NCBI GenBank assembly: GCA_947627625.1
Contig: CANQWR010000010.1
Coordinates: 1 to 64,000 of the forward strand
DNA length: 64,000 bases
Source of the DNA: an uncultured Ruminococcus sp.
Lineage (GTDB): Bacteria; Bacillota; Clostridia; Oscillospirales; Ruminococcaceae
Direction: 5' to 3'
Shown: positions 24,435 to 35,915 of the stretch, piece after piece
Position numbering within the stretch: the stretch's first letter is position 1
Layout: every line of letters starts with the position of its first letter
The notes under the pieces: model-generated
The model's database searches: none
Told to the model about the DNA's origin: nothing
The model's input: only the letters and a program-made list of their open reading frames with translations
Made by a program: the position numbers and the translations under genes

Positions 24435-26063
24435 TTAGTTATAATTCAGAGCAAGACGGTAGTCGACAGCACCCGAAAAAGCGTCATAGGAAATATTTTC
24501 ATTCCCGCTTTTGAATATCAGGTAGGAATTTTTATAAAATATGGGGATAAATCTGTAGTCGCTGAGAAGAAGCTCCTCCGCCTCTGCGTACTTTACAGCA
24601 AGCTCGTCATCATTTGCACAGGACATCAGGGTGTCGGACAGTCCCGCATCGGAGAACTTGTTTTTAAGGCAGGGAGTGTTCTCAAATTTTTCTATGAAAG
24701 ACAGACCGCTTGCGAAATCGGCAGTGAGAGGGTACAGAGCGATAGTGTAATCGCCGTCTGAAATTCTCTGTGAGAACTGTGTGGGAGTAACGTCTTCAAT
24801 GCCGAGATTCATTCCCGAGACAGATTCCCAGTGTTCAACAAGTGGCTGTAAATACACGGAGTTTATAGTCTTTGCGTTCACAAGAATTTTTATCTCCTCA
24901 TCTTTGGGAGGATCTGCGGACTTAAACAAATTTGAGGCAGTCGGCATATCGTAGTATTCAAACTGTGAGTCGGGAGACATAGTCCTGTAGGATTTGCCGT
25001 TGATTTTTATTCCCTGTGGAATTATACCTCTTGCAGGAGACAAGTCCTCCGAGTCGACGATCTCACTGATGGAATTTCTGTCAACGGAGAGTGCAAAGGC
25101 TTTACGCATATCGTCCGAGGAGAGAGGTTTTTCGGGGTTGAAAATCAGACCGAGAGTAACCGAGTTTACGGACTTTGTGACACATTTTTCGGAGTTATAA
25201 AGAGATGGGTCAAGGGAAGTCATGCACTCCGCACTGTCCTGCATAAAGAGTGTCTTGACGCTCTCTTCGCTGTCCTCAATTGAGAAACTCAGATAGGAGG
25301 GAGCTATTTCAAAGTTTTCCGACACATTTGGTTCATTTTTTTTCATATAGAGAATATTGTTTGAGCCGTAGGGGTCATAAAACCACTGTCTAACATAGAA
25401 CGCACCATTTGACATTACACTCTTGTCGTCAAGACCGTATCTGCCCTTTGTGGAGAAAAAAAAACTTCTGTTGCAGGGGAGTGCGGGGGGAGTTGATAGA
25501 AGATTGAGAAATTCGGCGTTTTTGTTTTCGAGGACTATCACAAGCGTGTAATTGTCGGTGGCGTATATTTCGGCAGAGTTTACAGGAGCTTCACCGTCTA
25601 TTATAGCCTTTGCACCCTTTATACAGGAGAAATTGTGTGCATAGGGAGACTTCATTTCGGGGTTCAGGACACGCTGTAGTGCGAACACATAGTCATCGGC
25701 TGTGACGGGGAAATATTCGTCATCACCGATAAAATCGTCCTCATTCTGGTCAAAGAACCAGTAATTGTCGTGTCTCAGACTGAAAGTGTAAGCAGTGCCG
25801 TCCTCCGAGACCGAATAGCTCTCAACGTTGCAGGGGACTGTATTTCCGTCAGCATCAGTCGTAAAAAGACCGCTGTAGAGATTTTTGATAACGGTAGCGG
25901 AGGAAGGGTCTCCCGAGAACACTTGCGGGTCGAGACTTTGAGGGTTGCCGATAAGAGCGGATTCATAGTTATGTCCCTCACCGCTGTTTCCGCTTGAGTT
26001 TCCGCAAGAGGTGAGCATTACCGCACACGCACACAGCACAACAGCAAGTTTTCTCTTTTTCAT
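24435..26063 (-). CDS. Peptide ABC transporter substrate-binding lipoprotein (SBP_bac_5)
   Basis: 542-aa oligopeptide-binding protein of the OppA/DppA family. Lipoprotein signal peptide with lipobox LTSC (Cys20). The mature protein begins with NYESALIGNPQSLDPQVF, typical of SBP_bac_5, and has TAYTFSLRHDNYWF and AFALSVDRNSI. ATG 26063 has AAAGGAG upstream; a longer reading up to 26168 would run into a repeat. No permease or ATPase gene is adjacent, so it is an orphan binding protein that may serve a transporter elsewhere or act as a peptide sensor. Confidence 0.92.
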   Translation of the reverse strand: MKKRKLAVVLCACAVMLTSCGNSSGNSGEGHNYESALIGNPQSLDPQVFSGDPSSATVIKNLYSGLFTTDADGNTVPCNVESYSVSEDGTAYTFSLRHDNYWFFDQNEDDFIGDDEYFPVTADDYVFALQRVLNPEMKSPYAHNFSCIKGAKAIIDGEAPVNSAEIYATDNYTLVIVLENKNAEFLNLLSTPPALPCNRSFFFSTKGRYGLDDKSVMSNGAFYVRQWFYDPYGSNNILYMKKNEPNVSENFEIAPSYLSFSIEDSEESVKTLFMQDSAECMTSLDPSLYNSEKCVTKSVNSVTLGLIFNPEKPLSSDDMRKAFALSVDRNSISEIVDSEDLSPARGIIPQGIKINGKSYRTMSPDSQFEYYDMPTASNLFKSADPPKDEEIKILVNAKTINSVYLQPLVEHWESVSGMNLGIEDVTPTQFSQRISDGDYTIALYPLTADFASGLSFIEKFENTPCLKNKFSDAGLSDTLMSCANDDELAVKYAEAEELLLSDYRFIPIFYKNSYLIFKSGNENISYDAFSGAVDYRLALNYN

Positions 26064-26112
26064 TCTATCATCTCCTTTGTGTTGACAATTTGGGGTAGAG
26101 GGTGTTTTTTTA

Positions 26113-26250
26113 TGGGGGACTTTGCCCCCTTTGGATTTTGGGGGTGTCTCCTCTGTGGGAATAATCATGGGGGGTCTGGGGGGATACTTCCCCCCAGTGG
26201 GGGTTCAGGGGGCAAAGCCCCCTGCCTCCTATCGTTCTAATTAAAATTCA
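26113..26250. repeat. G-rich composite hairpin repeat, copy 3
   Basis: It carries both conserved ends: CTCTGTGGGAATAATCATGG near 26151 and CTCCTATCGTTCTAAT near 26226. Between are GGGGGG-ATACTT-CCCCCC and GGGGGCAAAGCCCCC hairpins. A partial extra unit lies at 26113-26143. It lies between the two minus-strand genes. Confidence 0.85.
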
Positions 26251-26288
26251 CACATTCCCCAACAGTCCACAAGTCCCAAAAATTAAAA

Positions 26289-27500
26289 TTATAATTTATC
26301 TTTGACCGTGACTATAAAGCCGTCGGAGTTGTTGCCCGAGACCGTATATTCGCCCTTTTTTGGAACGAGTACGGCAGTCGCACCCCTCTTTGCACACGGT
26401 ACATAGTAAATTTTATACTTATAGTCATCGTCCTCAAACAGTAGCGGGTTGTCTTTAGTATGTGATTTCAGGAGTTGTATATACTCCTCCATGCAAAGAC
26501 TGTTTTTGTATATATATTCAGCGTGTGGGACACCGACATATCTGTATGTCCTGTATCTGTACTCCTCACCTGTTATGTCATCTTTTCCCTTTGGGAATCT
26601 TATTATAAAACCGTATTTCGGAGCGTTCTGCAAAAACCACCTGTACTCACCCGAGGCTTTGAAGTAGTAGGAATCGCCCTCCATGTTTTCAAATATAGCG
26701 AGGTCGAAAGTGCGGGAGGTGTGGTAGTCCGAAAAGCCCGGACGAAAGATTGAGTCACCACTTTGATAGATTTTTTCCTGCTGTTCGTAGGTGCGGAAAC
26801 CGTCTATGACCATTATATTTGAATCTTTTCTGTCGGTTTCCCTGAGAAATGCGGACATCATGAGGTTTAGTTTTCTTATGACGGTATCGTCAAGGGAAGT
26901 CACCATATCTTTGACGTCGTAGTCGTGATTTGTGTGGGAGTATACGGCAACGGTTTCGGTGTCATTTTCGGGGAATCTGTACTCATTTTCGGAGTTCACC
27001 AAAATGAGGTCGCCCTTGTATATATCGTCGTGAGGGTGTATTTCACGCATGAAGTTGGGGTCTGTGGTAGTGGTGGTAGTAGTTGTTGTAGTAGTGGTCG
27101 TGGTAGTCGTTGTAGTCGTGGTAGTAGTAGTGGTGGTTGTAGTAGTAGTCGTCGTGGTGGTTGTAGTAGTAGTCGTCGTGGTGGTTGTAGTAGTAGTGGT
27201 GGGAGTAGTAGTAGAAGTTGTTGTGGTGGGAGTCGTTGTGGTCTGTGTTGTTGAAGTAGTTGTTGAAGTTTCGGTTGTGGAAGTGGTACTGGTGGTAGTA
27301 GTTGAGGAAACGGTCTCGGAGGTCTGTGATACGGGCAGAATATCCCCGATGTCGCTGTAGTCCTCCTGCTTTTGATGAGAAGTTCCGAAAAATGCGACAA
27401 AAAGCAGTACAAACACCGCAATTACGGCGGCAGCTATTGCAATTCTGTCGTATCTTATTCTGTATCTCCGTCTGTTTCTGCGTTTTGTTCCTCTGTTCAT
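26289..27500 (-). CDS. VanY-like D,D-carboxypeptidase homologue with poly-Thr linker, probably catalytically impaired
   Basis: 403 aa. Basic N-terminus, one membrane segment (about 20-39), a Ser/Thr linker (about 60-155) that becomes an almost pure threonine run, then a peptidase M15B/VanY domain (about 185-345). GFRTYEQQEKIY and PGFSDYHTSRTFDL keep two zinc ligands (His260, Asp266), and PKYGFIIRFPKGKDD is conserved. The usual EPWHYRYVG motif reads RYRTYRYVG: the catalytic Glu is Arg315 and the third zinc ligand His is Thr318. It may be an inactive peptidoglycan-binding pseudoenzyme or use a shifted ligand such as His325-326 region. Extracellular, membrane anchored. Confident for family, less for activity. 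Confidence 0.85.
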   Translation of the reverse strand: MNRGTKRRNRRRYRIRYDRIAIAAAVIAVFVLLFVAFFGTSHQKQEDYSDIGDILPVSQTSETVSSTTTTSTTSTTETSTTTSTTQTTTTPTTTTSTTTPTTTTTTTTTTTTTTTTTTTTTTTTTTTTTTTTTTTTTTTTTTTTTTDPNFMREIHPHDDIYKGDLILVNSENEYRFPENDTETVAVYSHTNHDYDVKDMVTSLDDTVIRKLNLMMSAFLRETDRKDSNIMVIDGFRTYEQQEKIYQSGDSIFRPGFSDYHTSRTFDLAIFENMEGDSYYFKASGEYRWFLQNAPKYGFIIRFPKGKDDITGEEYRYRTYRYVGVPHAEYIYKNSLCMEEYIQLLKSHTKDNPLLFEDDDYKYKIYYVPCAKRGATAVLVPKKGEYTVSGNNSDGFIVTVKDKL

Positions 27501-27546
27501 ATAGAACGCTCTCCTTTTCGGGCATTATATTTTTTTCCCGAGTTAA

Positions 27547-27575
27547 ATTATAGCACAATGAAGCGGAACTGTAAA
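27547..27575 (-). promoter_or_regulatory. Predicted sigma-A promoter of the VanY-like gene
   Basis: On the minus strand TTTACA (27570-27575) and TATAAT (27547-27552) are spaced by 17 bases, about 45 bp upstream of the start codon. The VanY-like gene can therefore be transcribed apart from the SCIFF operon that ends at 27625. Confidence 0.7.
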
Positions 27576-27624
27576 GCATATTTATACAGTTTTCATGTAA
27601 TTTTCAGGAGTATAAGAGACGTAT

Positions 27625-28425
27625 TCAGACTATGTTCATGTAATTTTCGGCAGTATTCCTGCGAAATTCGGTTGGTGTACAGCCCTTTTTGATGCGGAAC
27701 TGTCGCATAAAATAGGAGTCGCTGTCGTAACCGCACTTTTCCGCTATTTCCGCAACAGACAGGTCTGTATTTATAAGAAGCTCCTCACTCCTTAAAATTC
27801 TGCTGTTTATTATGTCCTGATGACAGGTAGTGCCGAAAGCCCTTGTATAAATTCTGTGGAAGTACGCACGGCTCATACGCATATTATTGCAGATTACGTT
27901 TATATCCCAGTTTTTCTGTGGAGATTCATATATACTCTCCCTCAGACTGCAAAGCTGTGAATATCTCGGAATTATGTCGGAGTTGTCACGGCTTTTCGCC
28001 TTTTCGAGTTCCTCCGAGACACACAGGAAGAGCATTTTCATTGAGAGTGCGGAAAATTCGCTGAAACTGTCGCACTGTTCTATAAATTTTACTCTCAGAT
28101 TTTTTATAATGGACGATATTACAAAGTCGTCCTTTACCGTGACAGGGGTGTTGAGAGCTATCCCCGATGATTTTATATAGTCGCACTCTTCGGGGGAGGG
28201 AGTGAAATAGATCATGTCGAACTTTATCTGTCTGCCGTTTGGGGAGCATAGGGAGAGTTTCCCCTCGGAGAATATTGCTATTGACTTAGGACAGAGAGTT
28301 TTCCCCGATTCACCGCACTCCAATATTACGGGAGTCCTGAAAAAGCAGAGAAAAAAGCCGTTCGGGGCTACTCTGACATCTCTCCTTATCCTCTTGCAGT
28401 TGAGCTGAATATTAAGAATTTTCAT
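27625..28425 (-). CDS. AraC family transcriptional regulator
   Basis: 266 aa. The N-terminal half (1-150) is a beta-rich cupin-like sensory domain without strong motifs. The C-terminal half (about 165-260) holds two helix-turn-helix units: NWDINVICNNMRMSRAYFHR and LSVAEIAEKCGYDSDSYFMR, ending in the PTEFRR signature. It overlaps the SCIFF maturase gene by 14 bases and is the last gene of that operon, so it probably regulates this operon or a process tied to it. Ligand unknown. Confidence 0.9.
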   Translation of the reverse strand: MKILNIQLNCKRIRRDVRVAPNGFFLCFFRTPVILECGESGKTLCPKSIAIFSEGKLSLCSPNGRQIKFDMIYFTPSPEECDYIKSSGIALNTPVTVKDDFVISSIIKNLRVKFIEQCDSFSEFSALSMKMLFLCVSEELEKAKSRDNSDIIPRYSQLCSLRESIYESPQKNWDINVICNNMRMSRAYFHRIYTRAFGTTCHQDIINSRILRSEELLINTDLSVAEIAEKCGYDSDSYFMRQFRIKKGCTPTEFRRNTAENYMNIV

Positions 28426-29794
28426 TTTCTTCTCCGAAAGTCCTAAGAGCTTTAAGCATTATTGCACATTCAAGACGTTTCTTTTCAAGCTGACAGGAGA
28501 TTTTGTGAGCCGAACGAATATCGCCGTTGTACTGGTAATTGTTGGCGTTACAGCCACCGCTGCAGTAGAATTTAGCCCAACACTTTTTACATTCGGGTTT
28601 TGAATAGATATGTGCGGAGGCGAAATCCTCTTTTATGGACTGGTTGAAAGTGCCGTCATTTATATTGCCCATTTTGAACTTGTCCTCACCTACAAACTGG
28701 TGACAGGGGAAAATATCGCCGTCAGGAGTTATAGCAATGTAGTCGTTTCCACAACCACAGCCCCTGAGACGTTTCACCGCACAGGGACCTTGGTCGAGGT
28801 CGATCATAAAGTGGAAGAAGTTGAACTTACCGCCTTTTTTTTCGTTTTCAAATATTCTCTTTGCGAGATTTTCGTACTCCCTGAAAATTGCGGGAATTTC
28901 CCTTTCGGTTATGCCGTAACCCTGAGCGTCACCCGTGACAGGTTCAATGGAAATCTGGTCAAAACCCTCCTCGTAGAGTGCAAAAACGTCATCGGAGAAG
29001 TTGAGATTCTGATTCGTAAAAGTACCCCTGACATAGTACTCCTTTTCGCCCCTCTGTGCGACGAGTTCCTTGTATTTGTCGATAATCAGGTCATAACAGC
29101 CCGAACCGTCGGGGAATACTCTGAACTCGTCATTTATCTCCTTTCTGCCGTCTATGGACAGCACAACGTTGGACATCTCTTTATTTATGAAGTCAATTTT
29201 GTCGTCGTCAAGCAGGAGACCGTTGGTAGTTATAGTGAACCTGAATTTCTTGTTATATTCGGTCTCACGGCTTCTTGCGTACTCAACTGTCTGTTTCACC
29301 ACATCAAAATTCATAAGCGGTTCACCGCCAAAGAAATCCACTTCAAGATTAGGTCTGTCACCCGAATTTTCAAGTACGAAGTCTATAGCTTTTTTGGCGG
29401 TCTCAAAGGGCATAAGTTTTCTGCCCTTGCCGAAGTCACCCGTGGAGGCAAAGCAGTATTTACATCTGAGTTGACAGTCGTGGGAAATATTCAGGCACAG
29501 AGCCTTGACGGGAGATGCAACAGAATATTTTGCAAATTTTTCATAGTCGTCCTCTGAGAATAAAATTTTCTCCTCGTAGAGCTGTACTATTTCCTGATAG
29601 CATGACTCTATATCTTCAGGTGAGTAGGACAGAGACAGTTTTTTGACGACCGTTTCGGGGCAATGCTCCTCAAAAGGCGGTTCAACGTTGTCAAGCAGGT
29701 CATATGTGAGTTCGTCCACAATGTGTACTCCACCGCTGTTCACGTCCAGAACTATATTAAAATTATTTAATTTGAACTTGTGTATCATGATCAA
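28412..29794 (-). CDS. scfB: SCIFF radical SAM maturase (thioether cross-link forming, CteB/ScfB type)
   Basis: 460-aa radical SAM/SPASM enzyme that forms Cys-to-alpha/gamma-carbon thioether links in the SCIFF precursor. Domains in order: N-terminal RiPP recognition-like segment (1-85), radical SAM core with Cys107, Cys111 and Cys114 in HDCQLRCKYCF, then GGEPLMNF, and a cysteine-rich SPASM region (about 340-440; GCGCGNDYIA, FPCHQF, CKKCWAKFYCSGGCNANNY) for two auxiliary clusters. The SCIFF peptide gene lies upstream in the same operon, but a TIR-domain gene is inserted between them, overlapping this start by four bases. That insertion is unusual. Confidence 0.95.
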   Translation of the reverse strand: MIMIHKFKLNNFNIVLDVNSGGVHIVDELTYDLLDNVEPPFEEHCPETVVKKLSLSYSPEDIESCYQEIVQLYEEKILFSEDDYEKFAKYSVASPVKALCLNISHDCQLRCKYCFASTGDFGKGRKLMPFETAKKAIDFVLENSGDRPNLEVDFFGGEPLMNFDVVKQTVEYARSRETEYNKKFRFTITTNGLLLDDDKIDFINKEMSNVVLSIDGRKEINDEFRVFPDGSGCYDLIIDKYKELVAQRGEKEYYVRGTFTNQNLNFSDDVFALYEEGFDQISIEPVTGDAQGYGITEREIPAIFREYENLAKRIFENEKKGGKFNFFHFMIDLDQGPCAVKRLRGCGCGNDYIAITPDGDIFPCHQFVGEDKFKMGNINDGTFNQSIKEDFASAHIYSKPECKKCWAKFYCSGGCNANNYQYNGDIRSAHKISCQLEKKRLECAIMLKALRTFGEENENS

Positions 29795-31356
29795 AATTCC
29801 TCCTCGTCAATAAGACGCTTTTCAAGATTTTTCTTTGCTTTTATGTTGCCCCTGCATAAGATTACAATAGCCAATATAGTCCCCGACCATTCAACGCAGA
29901 AACTGAAAACCACAGCGATTTCAATAGAATTAAAAAGTTTTACAGCAAATATGTGAGCCAAATCAAACAAGAACCAAGTGCCGATAGCAATGAAAAGATT
30001 TTTTAACTTGTCAATTTTGTAGTGTTTTATAGCCCTGTTGAATTTTTCATAGTTGGGATTTTCGGTCGGAACCTGACTGTCCATAGAGGCGTTTTCGTTG
30101 AAAGAAAGTCTCCTTGCGAGATTTTCGTCTGCCTTTTTAAGTTTTCTTAAATATTTCGGAAGATAAAATACTACCGTCAGAATAAGCATGACAAATGTAA
30201 TTATCATCCACGGAATCGGAGAGGATATTTTGTCAAACATAAATGCTGTAATAAAGCACCACAACAAAAGTTCCCCGAAGGCGACAATTACGAATTTACC
30301 CGACATTTCGCTGCGTTCTTTTTTGTACAGCAGATAGGCGTTTTTCTTTTCCTCAATGGCAGTTTTTCTGTACTGTTCCTCATAGGCGTGCAGTTTGGTC
30401 ATCTGACTTTTCAGTCTTAGTTCGTACTGTTCAAAGAAATTTTTCAGTTGATTTTTTGTGTCGGAGTTTGCGGACATGATTTCCTCTATATTTTTAATTA
30501 TATTCCCGACAGCGTTTTCGTCAGCGAGATTCTGAGCCTGAAAGCCTTTTAACTCGTCCGGCAGAGAGGTGACACCCATTTCCGAATAACAGGGAATTAT
30601 AACTCTGCTGTTGTCGGATTTCATAAGGTCAAGAAACCTGCTCCACTCGTTCCGCACCCACACAGCGTTGAAATGTTCGGGGGAAGTCCCCACGCAGAGC
30701 ATTACTCTTGCGGAATTTATAGCCGAGAATATATAGGGTTCAAATTCAGTGCCGAGCTTGTCCCTGAGAGTTACGGACGAAAAAAAGACTTTGAAATTTT
30801 TTTCGGTGAGAGTTTTATAGAGTTTTTCCGCAAGAAAACTGTCTTTAGTCCTGATGTTGTTATCGCTCTCTTTGTAGCAGATAAAAATATCAAAGGGCTT
30901 TTCTTTTGCGGACACGGAAATAATTTTCCTCTGGATTTCGTCAATCCTGTCAGCCTCTTTTGAGTATATTGACGCCATAATTTCGTCAGCGTATTTTATA
31001 GCGTTTTCAAAATCTGAAGTCTCTTTTATCCTCTCAAAAGACGTTCTGTGACAGGTGGGGATTTTTTTACCCGTGTCGGGATCTGTGACATATTCTATAC
31101 CGTAACGGCACAGGCACAGCCCCCAGTAAGCTTCCGACTCGTTCGGAAATATCGAGACTATCTCCGAATAGACATCACAAGCCCTGTCGAACTGGCAGTC
31201 AAAGCGGAGTTTGTTTGCCCTGTTGAAAAGATTTAATTTTTTCTCACCGCTTATATTTGGGATAGTCTGATAGCTGTCGCAGTAACTGCACTTGCATATT
31301 CTCATGCCCTCAGTGATTTCGAGATTTCCTCCGCACATTTTGCAGTTAAAAACCAT
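29791..31356 (-). CDS. TIR-domain membrane protein with N-terminal zinc ribbon
   Basis: 521 aa. A zinc ribbon (Cys5, Cys8, Cys21/23, Cys26), a helical repeat-like segment with AYWGLCLCRYG (about 40-145), then a TIR domain (about 153-290). The TIR starts FDIFICYKESD and has VFFSSVTLRDKLGTEFEPYI, where Glu204 or Glu206 is the candidate NADase glutamate, and VRNEWSRF. A coiled segment and four membrane helices (about 352-372, 380-400, 450-470, 475-497) complete it. Similar zinc ribbon-TIR proteins occur in Firmicutes with no settled role. Here it lies between the SCIFF precursor and maturase genes, coupled to the latter by ATGA. NAD cleavage, signalling or an immune role is inference. Confidence 0.88.
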   Translation of the reverse strand: MVFNCKMCGGNLEITEGMRICKCSYCDSYQTIPNISGEKKLNLFNRANKLRFDCQFDRACDVYSEIVSIFPNESEAYWGLCLCRYGIEYVTDPDTGKKIPTCHRTSFERIKETSDFENAIKYADEIMASIYSKEADRIDEIQRKIISVSAKEKPFDIFICYKESDNNIRTKDSFLAEKLYKTLTEKNFKVFFSSVTLRDKLGTEFEPYIFSAINSARVMLCVGTSPEHFNAVWVRNEWSRFLDLMKSDNSRVIIPCYSEMGVTSLPDELKGFQAQNLADENAVGNIIKNIEEIMSANSDTKNQLKNFFEQYELRLKSQMTKLHAYEEQYRKTAIEEKKNAYLLYKKERSEMSGKFVIVAFGELLLWCFITAFMFDKISSPIPWMIITFVMLILTVVFYLPKYLRKLKKADENLARRLSFNENASMDSQVPTENPNYEKFNRAIKHYKIDKLKNLFIAIGTWFLFDLAHIFAVKLFNSIEIAVVFSFCVEWSGTILAIVILCRGNIKAKKNLEKRLIDEEEF

Positions 31357-31389
31357 GAAGATCCTCCTGTAATAAGTATTTTACTGTAT

Positions 31390-31421
31390 AAAAATGAGCC
31401 GGCTTTTCCATTCACCGGCTC
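31390..31421 (-). terminator. Attenuator-like terminator between SCIFF precursor and TIR gene
   Basis: On the minus strand GAGCCGG (31415-31421) pairs with CCGGCTC (31396-31402) over a 12-base loop, followed by A then five T. It lies 20 bases after the SCIFF stop. Partial termination here would give more precursor transcript than downstream enzyme transcript, as is usual in RiPP operons. Confidence 0.8.
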
Positions 31422-31441
31422 GGCAGAGTTCTGAAGCGAGT

Positions 31442-31579
31442 TTATTTTTCACACTTCTGGTTTGCGACAGTACAAGAAGTCTTGCAGGCGGACTGGCATG
31501 AAGCCTGACACTTGCCGCAGCCGCCTTTTTTAGCTGACTCTTTCAGATTTGCCTTGTTGATAGTCCTGATGTGTTTCAT
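31442..31579 (-). CDS. scfA: SCIFF ranthipeptide precursor (six cysteines in forty-five residues)
   Basis: 45-aa precursor of a thioether-bridged RiPP. Leader MKHIRTINKANLKESAKKG, then a core with cysteines at 21, 24, 28, 32, 36 and 43 (CGKCQASCQSACKTSC, then QKC). Length and cysteine count fit the family name exactly. The ribosome site AGGAGG lies eight bases upstream of ATG 31579, and a near-consensus promoter precedes it. The maturase is encoded two genes downstream. SCIFF peptides are near-universal in Clostridia; their role is still debated, with population-level signalling proposed. Confidence 0.96.
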   Translation of the reverse strand: MKHIRTINKANLKESAKKGGCGKCQASCQSACKTSCTVANQKCEK

Positions 31580-31628
31580 AACAAATTCCTCCTAATTATT
31601 TTTACGGGCAAGCCGTTTGTAGATTTTC

Positions 31629-31657
31629 ATTATATCACATTTCCCGAATTTTTTCAA
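31629..31657 (-). promoter_or_regulatory. Predicted sigma-A promoter of the SCIFF operon
   Basis: On the minus strand TTGAAA (31652-31657) and TATAAT (31629-31634) have a 17-base spacer. The start codon lies about 50 bases downstream, with a small hairpin (ACGG/CCGT) in the leader. Confidence 0.75.
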
Positions 31658-31752
31658 TAGTTTTTTCTGAAACGAGGGGGAGAAATTTTAATTTTAGTGA
31701 TTTGTCACAATTCAGGTTGACTATGTATGTGATATATTGACTATTATTATGT

Positions 31753-32085
31753 TGAGGACCTGTTTCTTCTGTGGGAATAATCATGGGGGGTTCGGGGGGA
31801 TACTTCCCCCCGACGGGGGTTTGGGGGCAGAGCCCCCAATGGGGGTTCAGGGGGCAAAGCCCCCTGCCCCTTATCGTTCTAATAAAATTTCAGATGTAAC
31901 TGCACCTGTTCCACTATTATTTCAATAGAAAAATTTCTAAAAAAATTATAATTTTAAGAAAATTATTTTTTGGGCAAAGCCCCTTTGGAAACCCGTGATT
32001 AAACACTTTATAGTTCTCTCACCATTTAAGTTTTTGTCTAATTATGGAGGGTGTACCCCCTGCCCCTAATCGTTCACTCCCCCCT
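31753..32085. repeat. G-rich composite repeat, copy 4, with AT palindrome and third module
   Basis: This occupies most of the 512-bp gap between the SCIFF promoter and spoIVA. A full G-rich unit runs from CTGTGGGAATAATCATGGGG (near 31769) to CCCCTTATCGTTCTAAT (near 31864). An AT-rich near-palindrome lies at about 31938-31972, then GGGCAAAGCCCC and a third module (GTGATTAAACACTTTATAGT near 31994), ending CCCCTAATCGTTC near 32070. No gene is visible. Confidence 0.85.
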
Positions 32086-32091
32086 AAAAAA

Positions 32092-33576
32092 TTACAATAT
32101 AAAACATATAAGACCCGAACAGCCGTCGTTTATAACTCTTTCGAGAGTCTCCTGTAGTTTCATTCTTGCATCGGAGGGCATTTTGTAGAGTTTGCTGTGC
32201 AAGCCCTCGTTTACAAGTTCGTGGAGGGATTTACCGAAGATGTTGCTCTCCCATATTTTTGTGGGGTTGTCGTCAAAGCCGTCAAGGAGGTACATGACGA
32301 GTTCCTCCGACTGCTTTTCCGTGCCGACAATAGGGCTTACAGTAGTGGTGATGTTTGCTTTCATAAGGTGTATAGAGGGGGCGGAGGCTTTCAGTTTCAC
32401 GCCATATTTACCGCCCTGTTTTATAATTTTAGGCTCTTCAAGGGTGAGTTCCTCCATTTCGGGCATTACTATCCCGTAGCCCGTAGCTTCCACTTCAGCG
32501 AGTGCAGGAGCGATTTTTTCGTATTTTTTCTTAATGTCGTTCATCTCCATAAGAAGCGGCATTAAATCGCTCTCACTCTCTATCTCTATACCCGTCTCCT
32601 CACCGAGAATTTTGTAAAATAAACTGCTTTCGAGGTCGGCAGTGACCGTCACAGAGCCACGCCCCAAATCCATAGAAGTTATAGAGCAGTTGACAATGTG
32701 CGGACACTCTCCCATTGCCGTAACGGCAGTATCGGTCTCACGCATTATTTTAACGTCCTTTGCGGAATTTCTTATGCAGTCGAGAATTTCTTTTCTCAGC
32801 CAGTGTCCCTTTTCGAGAGAGTTTATCCAGTGTGCGGTACGGATATTTATCTCTTTCACGGGGAAGGAGTAAAGAATTTCCTTTATTATCTCTCTTATGT
32901 CGTTCTCATCGAGGTCGATACAGCTCACGGGTATGACTTTTGCATCGTACCTGTCGGTCAGTTCGGAGGCGAGTTTTTTAGTTTCGGAAGATGTCGGGGA
33001 AGTCGTGTTGAGAATTACAACAAAGGGCTTTCCGAGTTCTTTCAGTTCGTTTATGACTCTCTCCTCACATTCGGCGTACTCCTCTCTGGGAATATCCGAA
33101 ATAGAGCCGTCGGTGGTGACGACAAGACCTATTGTAGAGTGGTCTGTTATGACTTTCTGAGTACCTATCTCCGCAGCCATATTAAAGGGAATTTCCTCTT
33201 CAAACCACGAAGTCATAACCATTCTGGGCTGTTCGTTTTCAATGTACCCTATGGAACTCGGCACTATGTAGCCCACGCAGTCTATAAGACGGACGTTGAA
33301 AATCGCACCCCCTCCGAGACTGACCTCAACAGCTTCCTCGGGAATGAATTTCGGTTCGGTGGTCATGATAGTCTTTCCCGCAGAGGACTGTGGCAATTCG
33401 TCCAAAGCCCTCTCACGCATGAATTCGCTCTTTATATTGGGAATCACAAGAGACTCCATGAAGTGCTTTATAAAAGTGGACTTTCCCGTCCTGACAGGTC
33501 CCACAACGCCTATATATATGTCTCCACCTGTACGCTCTGCAATGTTGCTGTAAATATCCTTTGTCAAAACTGCCAA
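32092..33576 (-). CDS. spoIVA: Stage IV sporulation protein A, SpoIVA
   Basis: Spore coat base ATPase that polymerises on the forespore surface. 494 aa from TTG 33576, which has AAAGGGG nine bases upstream and gives MAVLTKDIYSNIAERTGGD, matching the usual N-terminus and length (492 aa in B. subtilis). A longer reading from another TTG at 33606 is not supported. Walker A GPVRTGKS lies at about 26-33 and the DCVGYIVPSSIGYIE segment follows. The C-terminal end LICFIL fits the coat-assembly tail. Its partner sipL is encoded immediately upstream on the same strand. Confidence 0.95.
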   Translation of the reverse strand: MAVLTKDIYSNIAERTGGDIYIGVVGPVRTGKSTFIKHFMESLVIPNIKSEFMRERALDELPQSSAGKTIMTTEPKFIPEEAVEVSLGGGAIFNVRLIDCVGYIVPSSIGYIENEQPRMVMTSWFEEEIPFNMAAEIGTQKVITDHSTIGLVVTTDGSISDIPREEYAECEERVINELKELGKPFVVILNTTSPTSSETKKLASELTDRYDAKVIPVSCIDLDENDIREIIKEILYSFPVKEINIRTAHWINSLEKGHWLRKEILDCIRNSAKDVKIMRETDTAVTAMGECPHIVNCSITSMDLGRGSVTVTADLESSLFYKILGEETGIEIESESDLMPLLMEMNDIKKKYEKIAPALAEVEATGYGIVMPEMEELTLEEPKIIKQGGKYGVKLKASAPSIHLMKANITTTVSPIVGTEKQSEELVMYLLDGFDDNPTKIWESNIFGKSLHELVNEGLHSKLYKMPSDARMKLQETLERVINDGCSGLICFIL

Positions 33577-33647
33577 CGCAATTATCCCCTTTCTCTTTAC
33601 AAACAATAATGGACTTCTTGCGTAATTAAATTATAATTTATGTTTTC

Positions 33648-35544: not shown

Positions 35545-35915
35545 GGTGTTTATTGGGGGCGTTGCCTTGTGGGGGACTCTGCCCCCAAGCCTCAAAAAAT
35601 AATTTTCTTAAAATTATATTTTTTTGGAAATTTTTCTATTAAAATAATTGTGGAGCAGGTACAATTTATTAGAACGATAGGGGGTAGGGGGCTTTGCCCC
35701 AAAAAATAATTTTCTTAAAATTATAATTTTTTGGAAATTTCTTTTATTTGTAGACTGTCGGGGACTGTGCAAATTTTAATTAGAACGATAAGGGGCAGGG
35801 GGCTTTGCCCCCTGAACCCCCATTGGGGGCTCTGCCCCCAAACCCCCGTCGGGGGGAAGAATCCCCCCGAACCCCCCCATGATTATTCCCACAGAGGAAA
35901 CAAACCCCACCCCAA
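35545..35915. repeat. G-rich composite repeat, copy 6, with two AT palindromes
   Basis: This is most of the 513-bp space between sipL and tRNA-Arg. A partial unit at 35554-35590 is followed by AT near-palindromes at about 35593-35635 and 35700-35740. A complete inverted unit runs from AACGATAAGGGGCAGGGGGC (35784) to the complement of the CTGTGGGAATAATCATGGGG end (about 35897). No gene is visible. Confidence 0.85.

What the first reader, a model, noticed from the sequence alone, without database searches (positions are those of the whole stretch)
27625..31657. SCIFF ranthipeptide operon with an inserted zinc ribbon-TIR membrane protein and an AraC regulator
Order on the minus strand: promoter, SCIFF precursor, attenuator, TIR protein, SCIFF maturase, AraC regulator, with overlaps of 4 and 14 bases. 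SCIFF precursor and maturase are usually close neighbours. A TIR protein with a candidate NADase glutamate and four membrane helices, placed between them and translationally coupled to the maturase, suggests the modified peptide and TIR protein work together, for example as signal and membrane sensor, or as a peptide-controlled NAD-cleaving effector. The partnership is inference; the gene arrangement is directly seen.
Basis: partly seen in the sequence, partly recalled or inferred. Interest (0 to 1): 0.82.

Follow-up and report, generated by a model that had tools for sequence, protein, structure and literature searches.

The report
TIR gene inside SCIFF peptide operon
In some gut and rumen Ruminococcus bacteria, a gene for a membrane-anchored TIR protein (a type that often cleaves NAD) sits in one fixed place between a highly conserved small peptide gene and the enzyme that modifies that peptide, which suggests, but does not prove, that peptide and TIR protein work together.

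Summary
The gene order is confirmed: promoter, SCIFF precursor, hairpin, zinc ribbon-TPR-TIR protein with a membrane tail, SCIFF maturase, AraC regulator. It is not peculiar to this genome. In 125 genomes of the genus I found 21 genes of this TIR type; all 21 lie between SCIFF and maturase (20 on one contig, one over two overlapping contigs). In 92 other SCIFF loci the gap is 56-207 bp and holds no TIR. In an order-level sample of 103 loci, 102 have gaps of 20-550 bp; only the window has a gene-sized insert. The 17 SCIFF-type TIRs tested form one clade (SH-aLRT 100) in a tree of 152 sequences; 0 of 108 other family loci show SCIFF in the DNA fetched. The TIR domain is under purifying selection and keeps the glutamate at the catalytic position. 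Two copies are broken and the tree implies about seven losses, so the gene is an accessory. The SCIFF core is nearly the same with or without TIR. AraC belongs to a separate AraC-VanY-OppA-like block. Best reading: one old recruitment of a membrane TIR enzyme or switch into the SCIFF operon. Partnership is plausible but unproven, because one inherited insertion gives the same pattern.

The parts
31629..31657 (-). sigma-A-type promoter-like site TTGAAA-17-TATAAT
   Evidence: 11 of 12 consensus positions; consensus match only
31442..31579 (-). SCIFF ranthipeptide precursor, 45 aa, six Cys
   Evidence: PF13165 1.4e-24, TIGR03973 above cut-off
31390..31421 (-). hairpin plus T-run (attenuator/terminator candidate) after SCIFF
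   Evidence: hairpin plus T-run in 21 of 21 TIR+ and 88 of 91 TIR- loci; shuffles pass in half and a third
29791..31356 (-). zinc ribbon (1-35), TPR-like helices (36-150), TIR (151-290), coiled/membrane tail (291-521)
   Evidence: E237 invariant in 17 aligned proteins
28412..29788 (-). SCIFF radical SAM/SPASM maturase, ATG start
   Evidence: TIGR03974 696 bits
27625..28425 (-). AraC-family regulator, overlaps the maturase by 14 bases; head of a separate AraC-VanY-OppA-like block
26289..27500 (-). VanY-like D-Ala-D-Ala carboxypeptidase with Thr-rich linker (AraC block)
24435..26168 (-). OppA-like oligopeptide-binding protein (AraC block)
   Evidence: matches to OppA models are below their cut-offs

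Best explanation
A gene of the zinc ribbon-TPR-TIR family was recruited once, near the base of this Ruminococcus genus, into the SCIFF operon, downstream of the existing hairpin and directly ahead of the maturase. Since then it has been kept under purifying selection or lost cleanly. It most likely works as a membrane-tethered accessory of the SCIFF pathway: it is made at low, maturase-like levels, its zinc ribbon/TPR half senses the SCIFF peptide or its maturation state, and on sensing, its cytosolic TIR domain cleaves NAD to make a signal or slow the cell. Shown here: placement, single origin of the gene type, exclusivity within what was searched, selection, Glu at the catalytic position, hydrophobic tail. 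Inferred: NAD cleavage, SCIFF as ligand, direction of control, expression level.
For: 21 of 21 SCIFF-type TIR genes in 125 genus genomes lie between SCIFF and maturase (G036 by contig overlap). No TIR and no gene-sized gap in 92 other loci, nor in 102 of 103 loci of the order sample (gaps 20-550 bp; the 330 and 550 bp gaps not inspected). One clade of 17 in a tree of 152, SH-aLRT 100. 0 of 108 other family loci show SCIFF or a maturase-like gene in the DNA fetched. The triad stays while downstream neighbours differ: deaminase, FtsW, dTMP kinase, AraC or others. dN/dS of the TIR region 0.05-0.14 in 11 chosen pairs. E237 invariant in 17 of 17, aligned with the Glu of WCLMEL in flax L6 TIR; best PDB fold match SARM1 TIR, E=8e-4. 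16 of 17 TIR-maturase junctions within -11 to +26 bases.
Against: The 21 loci are not independent: one inherited insertion suffices, and the upstream neighbour is the same ABC transporter-like gene in 18 of 19 non-window TIR+ loci, so little had to be 'kept'. The SCIFF core is almost unchanged with or without TIR. G005 and G109 carry broken TIR genes beside intact SCIFF and maturase (assembly error not excluded), and about seven losses are implied. The Glu is not diagnostic of an enzyme: the best sequence match in the PDB, a TLR2/TLR15 TIR (not known as an NADase; recalled), also has Glu there. The structure model is weak overall (pLDDT 73.6, pTM 0.35). No binding or activity data.
Confidence: 0.42

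Rival explanations
1. Passenger or parked defence gene: the TIR protein is a self-contained membrane NADase (for example an abortive-infection effector) that landed once in a conserved operon and is inherited there. It uses the SCIFF promoter and hairpin for low expression and has no biochemical dealing with SCIFF.
For: Family members elsewhere have other C-terminal parts; of four such loci annotated, two (L106, L109) have an SPFH/Band_7 neighbour and one (L106) restriction-modification genes. The tail evolves fast (dN/dS 0.15-0.46 where defined). Repeated loss, two broken copies, nearly unchanged SCIFF core. Vertical inheritance fits the distance ratios. Genomes with the SCIFF-type gene rarely hold another family member: 1 of 21 against 37 of 104, Fisher p=0.004, not corrected for kinship.
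Against: If the site were merely a convenient harbour, other genes should sit there too; none in 92 loci. No gene of this clade was found elsewhere. No PADLOC match for 4 of 5 TIR proteins scanned, one trivial CorA hit E=0.0055.
Confidence: 0.37
2. The TIR protein is a catalytically idle scaffold or membrane platform that holds maturase and precursor at the membrane, for example for maturation or export.
For: No exporter gene among the proteins scanned at the locus. Tight junction to the maturase. Zinc ribbon and TPR are typical binding modules (general knowledge). Glu at the position also in a TLR TIR.
Against: 92 loci have SCIFF and maturase without it. The Glu and surrounding motif are invariant.
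Confidence: 0.13

Closest known systems
SCIFF ranthipeptide system (precursor TIGR03973; maturase TIGR03974)
   Same: Precursor and maturase both exceed the curated cut-offs.
   Different: In 102 of 103 order-level loci and 92 of 112 genus loci the two genes are close neighbours without a gene-sized insert; here a TIR gene lies between them. SCIFF function is reported as quorum-sensing or sporulation related (passages of PMC8102284 and PMC8326336 citing Chen et al. 2020, which I did not read).
FxSxx-type peptide-processing modules with TIR-AP-ATPase-TPR (Kaur et al. 2020, PMC7159879, section 24 read in full)
   Same: Small peptide, radical SAM/SPASM enzyme and a TIR plus TPR protein encoded together; the authors predict a peptide toxin or signal.
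   Different: Actinobacterial; peptide ends in FxSxx; zincin metallopeptidase, vWA/VMAP partners and AP-ATPase there, not seen here.
Zinc ribbon-TPR-TIR family of gut Clostridia, in some loci beside SPFH/Band_7
   Same: Residues 1-300 align at 47-56% identity with the nearest members, about 30% with more distant ones.
   Different: C-terminus DUF6273, repeats or other TM parts instead of this tail; not near SCIFF.
Thoeris TIR proteins (type III ThcB4, NF058526)
   Same: TIR domain, weak match 23.6 bits.
   Different: Far below the cut-off of 220 bits; no Thoeris effector gene in the operon.

Membership tests
SCIFF ranthipeptide locus | Precursor over TIGR03973 cut-off and maturase over TIGR03974 cut-off, in one operon | tested here: met
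   82.6 against 50 and 696.4 against 425 bits
SCIFF ranthipeptide locus | Thioether cross-links in the product | not testable with these tools
   needs mass spectrometry
TIR_2 domain family | Pfam gathering score | tested here: met
   45 bits against 28; fold match SARM1 TIR
TIR NADases | Glutamate at the catalytic position (W-x-x-x-E) | tested here: met
   E237 invariant in 17 of 17, aligned with flax L6 WCLMEL (E=0.079 and 0.19); that this Glu is catalytic in L6 and SARM1 is recalled; a TLR TIR also has Glu there, so the feature is not sufficient
TIR NADases | NAD cleavage | not testable with these tools
   assay needed
Thoeris | Curated Thoeris TIR model | tested here: not met
   23.6 bits against 220
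Thoeris | Partner effector gene beside the TIR gene | tested here: not met
   operon holds SCIFF, maturase, AraC; no PADLOC match for TIR or AraC, only weak radical SAM (pVip) matches for the maturase; the rest of the genome was not searched
FxSxx/VMAP peptide-TIR system | Peptide with C-terminal FxSxx | tested here: not met
   SCIFF ends ...NQKCEK
FxSxx/VMAP peptide-TIR system | TIR protein with AP-ATPase (NB-ARC) | tested here: not met
   no ATPase domain in the TIR protein at E<=0.1
FxSxx/VMAP peptide-TIR system | Zincin metallopeptidase and vWA partner | tested here: not met
   none among six proteins scanned at 26292-33606; the only peptidase-like one is VanY-like (PF02557)

The most novel reading that the evidence does not exclude
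A bacterial TIR enzyme whose ligand is a radical-SAM-made thioether peptide (SCIFF): a peptide-gated, membrane-bound NAD-signalling switch recruited onto an otherwise widespread clostridial peptide system, convergent in logic with the actinobacterial FxSxx modules.
Probability: 0.3. Interest if true: 0.88.

Novelty: new variant of a known kind. Interest (0 to 1): 0.62.

Why it matters
SCIFF is widespread in Clostridia and, to my knowledge, its receptor is unknown. A TIR protein found only inside SCIFF operons is a concrete, testable candidate reader of this peptide. It would also link RiPP peptides to NAD-based signalling in gut and rumen bacteria.

Tried and rejected
Rejected: that the arrangement is a one-genome accident. 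Rejected: that AraC is part of the TIR unit; next to SCIFF it occurs in 19 TIR- loci of one clade and the window, heading an AraC-VanY-OppA-like block. Rejected: Thoeris or another curated defence system. Rejected: recent spread of a SCIFF-TIR cassette between the four TIR+ groups; TIR/maturase distance ratios between groups (median 3.09) are not lower than within (1.68); old transfers are not excluded. Viral contigs: 96 stretches matched a pattern, one encodes a relative (residues 3-298, 48% identity); its neighbourhood was not examined. The whole-protein profile matched nothing in the PDB by sequence.

Paper searches for the pairing found none: SCIFF + TIR domain, 0 papers; radical SAM + TIR domain + RiPP, 1, a cyanobacterial genome paper; TIR domain + zinc ribbon + SPFH, 1; TIR domain + Ruminococcus + NADase, 1; 44 papers with two of four terms; the 10 listed concern TIR, the other 34 were not seen. 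Searches searched SCIFF and ranthipeptide papers (listings only, 20 of 53 and 12 of 12). The library is open-licence PMC papers only.

Limits and rows dropped: 11 of 125 genus genomes had no maturase row over the cut-off, only fragments, or none (G018, G027, G035, G042, G049, G055, G066, G070, G072, G088, G107). Of 116 SCIFF loci examined, 4 did not show both genes (two are the halves of G036). The family-level search scored at most 3 candidates a genome. Flanks of the 108 other family loci range from under 1.5 to 10 kb, some cut by contig ends. The dN/dS pairs were 11 chosen pairs, some with dS above 1. Trees are 'quick' ones; one search warns of long branches, among them the join at the SCIFF clade's base, and no AU test was run. 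The paralogue contrast used my cut E<1e-20.
Full report
Observation. The window (contig C10 of a 2.04-Mb, 38-contig genome) holds on the minus strand a promoter-like site, a SCIFF precursor, a hairpin with T-run, a 521-aa zinc ribbon/TIR protein, a SCIFF maturase and an AraC regulator. The maturase ATG at 29788 leaves a 2-base gap after the TIR stop; the 4-base overlap holds for an upstream TTG only. This is the only gene of its kind found in the genome (1 match; genome 87% complete).

Distribution. The TIR protein was sought in 125 genomes of the genus and the maturase family in the same 125. Twenty-one hold a match that reaches into the C-terminal tail: 18 without stops, G036 at a contig end, and G005 and G109 interrupted. 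I took DNA around 116 SCIFF loci (114 genomes; and the window). In 112 loci SCIFF and maturase are on one contig: 92 have a 56-207 bp gap and no TIR, 20 have a 1648-1981 bp gap that holds the TIR gene. The 21st, G036, has SCIFF-TIR on one contig and TIR tail-maturase on another, and the two overlap in the TIR tail. No TIR remnant was found in the 92 other loci (tblastn E<=1e-3). In GTDB contigs the best 79 loci include 18 of this type; 18 of 18 have SCIFF directly upstream and 17 show the maturase (one contig ends first). In the order sample (147 genomes, window included) 104 have both genes, 103 on one contig: 102 gaps of 20-550 bp, two over 300 and not inspected. A family-level search (396 genomes, at most 3 candidates scored each) found the N-terminal family in 41, outside the genus without this tail (one chance-like tail match with stops, E=7e-4).

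Origin. In a tree of 152 N-terminal parts (17 SCIFF-type, 135 others, some duplicated between collections) the SCIFF-type is one side of a branch with SH-aLRT 100 (quick tree, long-branch warning). None of the 108 other loci shows SCIFF or a maturase-like radical SAM gene in the DNA fetched. On the maturase tree (114 rows) TIR presence needs four changes: a clade of 15, the window's clade of 4, G039 and G091. With one gain at the midpoint root, 7 losses follow. Distances between groups are not compressed for TIR relative to maturase, so recent cassette transfer is unlikely. Outer neighbours of 19 non-window TIR+ loci: upstream the same ABC transporter-like gene in 18 (also common in TIR- loci), downstream deaminase 8, FtsW on the other strand 3, dTMP kinase 1, none of the genes tested 6, too short 1. 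The window has SpoIVA upstream and AraC downstream. So the downstream side changed several times, the upstream side seldom.

Anatomy. Mean pairwise identities among 17 proteins: zinc ribbon 78%, TPR-like part 71%, TIR 73%, tail 43%; maturase 87%. G053 has a shorter tail (458 aa). dN/dS in 11 chosen pairs: maturase 0.02-0.04, TIR 0.05-0.14, tail 0.15-0.46 where defined (some dS above 1). The model (15 sequences, pLDDT 73.6, pTM 0.35) shows a TIR-like alpha/beta order and four long helices; the best PDB fold match is SARM1 TIR (E=8e-4). The profile of 19 TIR domains aligns E237 with the Glu of WCLMEL in flax L6 (E=0.079 and 0.19) and also with a Glu of the best match, a TLR2/TLR15 TIR (E=0.0024). 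That the residue is catalytic in L6 and SARM1, and that TLR TIRs are not known NADases, is recalled. NAD cleavage is likely but not shown.

Regulation. A hairpin with T-run follows SCIFF in 21 of 21 TIR+ and 88 of 91 TIR- loci. Shuffled stretches pass in 103 of 210 and 318 of 910, so the loose criterion is weak per locus; the total and the recurring GAGGCAG..CTGCCTC stem in many of the loci printed speak for a real element. The TIR gene lies downstream of it, so TIR and maturase may share a lower expression level than SCIFF (inference).

SCIFF itself. In 21 TIR+ loci the core is GGCGKCQASCQSACKTSCTVANQKCE plus R (17) or K (4, the window's clade). In 91 TIR- loci it is the same with R, except six with N or Q for the K of GKC, and one read short. 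Nothing in the peptide marks TIR presence; if TIR reads SCIFF, the TIR side adapted.

AraC. Each of the 125 genomes has homologues at E<=1e-25. Next to SCIFF it occurs in 19 TIR- loci (one maturase clade) and the window. A VanY-like gene follows in 19 of 19, an OppA-like gene was seen in 12 of 19 (not in the stretch fetched for the rest). In five other genomes the AraC-VanY-OppA block carries a TIR-less zinc ribbon/TPR protein between AraC and VanY.

Literature. Passages of PMC8102284 and PMC8326336 report SCIFF-derived ranthipeptides in quorum sensing and sporulation (Chen et al. 2020, not read itself). Section 24 of PMC7159879 was read in full, other passages of it seen: FxSxx peptides with radical SAM/SPASM and a TIR-AP-ATPase protein, predicted as toxin or signal. 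One table passage of PMC9092222 lists NAD products of several gut bacterial TIR_2 domains; whether any has this architecture I did not establish. No paper pairing SCIFF with TIR was found in the searches named under Tried and rejected.

Judgement. Arrangement and exclusive association within what was searched: shown. Functional partnership: slightly favoured, because no other gene was seen at the site and no gene of this clade elsewhere; weakened because one inherited insertion explains the counts and the gene is dispensable. The peptide-gated NAD switch is the boldest reading left open.

Noticed in passing
window 31760-31870, also 35792-35902: A GC-rich ~111-bp element with inverted repeats just upstream of the SCIFF operon; 41 near-full matches (own copy included) at 94-100% identity, with 40 of 403 first-look candidates scored. 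Looks like a high-copy REP/MITE-type repeat; total copy number not counted.
   Followed up: partly
window 24435-28425; 19 loci among L095-L295: An AraC-VanY(-OppA-like) block follows the SCIFF maturase in 19 TIR- loci and the window: a carboxypeptidase and an oligopeptide-binding protein next to a peptide operon.
   Followed up: partly
L307-L311: A TIR-less zinc ribbon-TPR protein (about 430-450 aa, hydrophobic C-terminus) sits between AraC and VanY in five genomes; its N-terminal part is 32-38% identical to the window's TIR protein.
   Followed up: partly
L106 4910-14189; L109: Zinc ribbon-TPR-TIR genes with DUF6273, repeat or TM C-termini beside an SPFH/Band_7 zinc-ribbon protein; in L106 three such genes next to a restriction-modification operon. 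No PADLOC match for the three L106 proteins scanned.
   Followed up: partly
genus genomes: Genomes with the SCIFF-type TIR rarely hold another zinc ribbon-TIR gene: 1 of 21 against 37 of 104 (Fisher p=0.004, not corrected for kinship).
   Followed up: partly
8 TIR+ loci among L064-L079: A small cytidine-deaminase-like gene (below curated cut-offs) follows the maturase in 8 of 19 non-window TIR+ loci and in 0 of 92 TIR- loci; probably a clade trait.
   Followed up: partly
window 26289-27500: VanY-like protein with a very long threonine tract after its N-terminal hydrophobic stretch; the tract length could vary by slippage.
   Followed up: no
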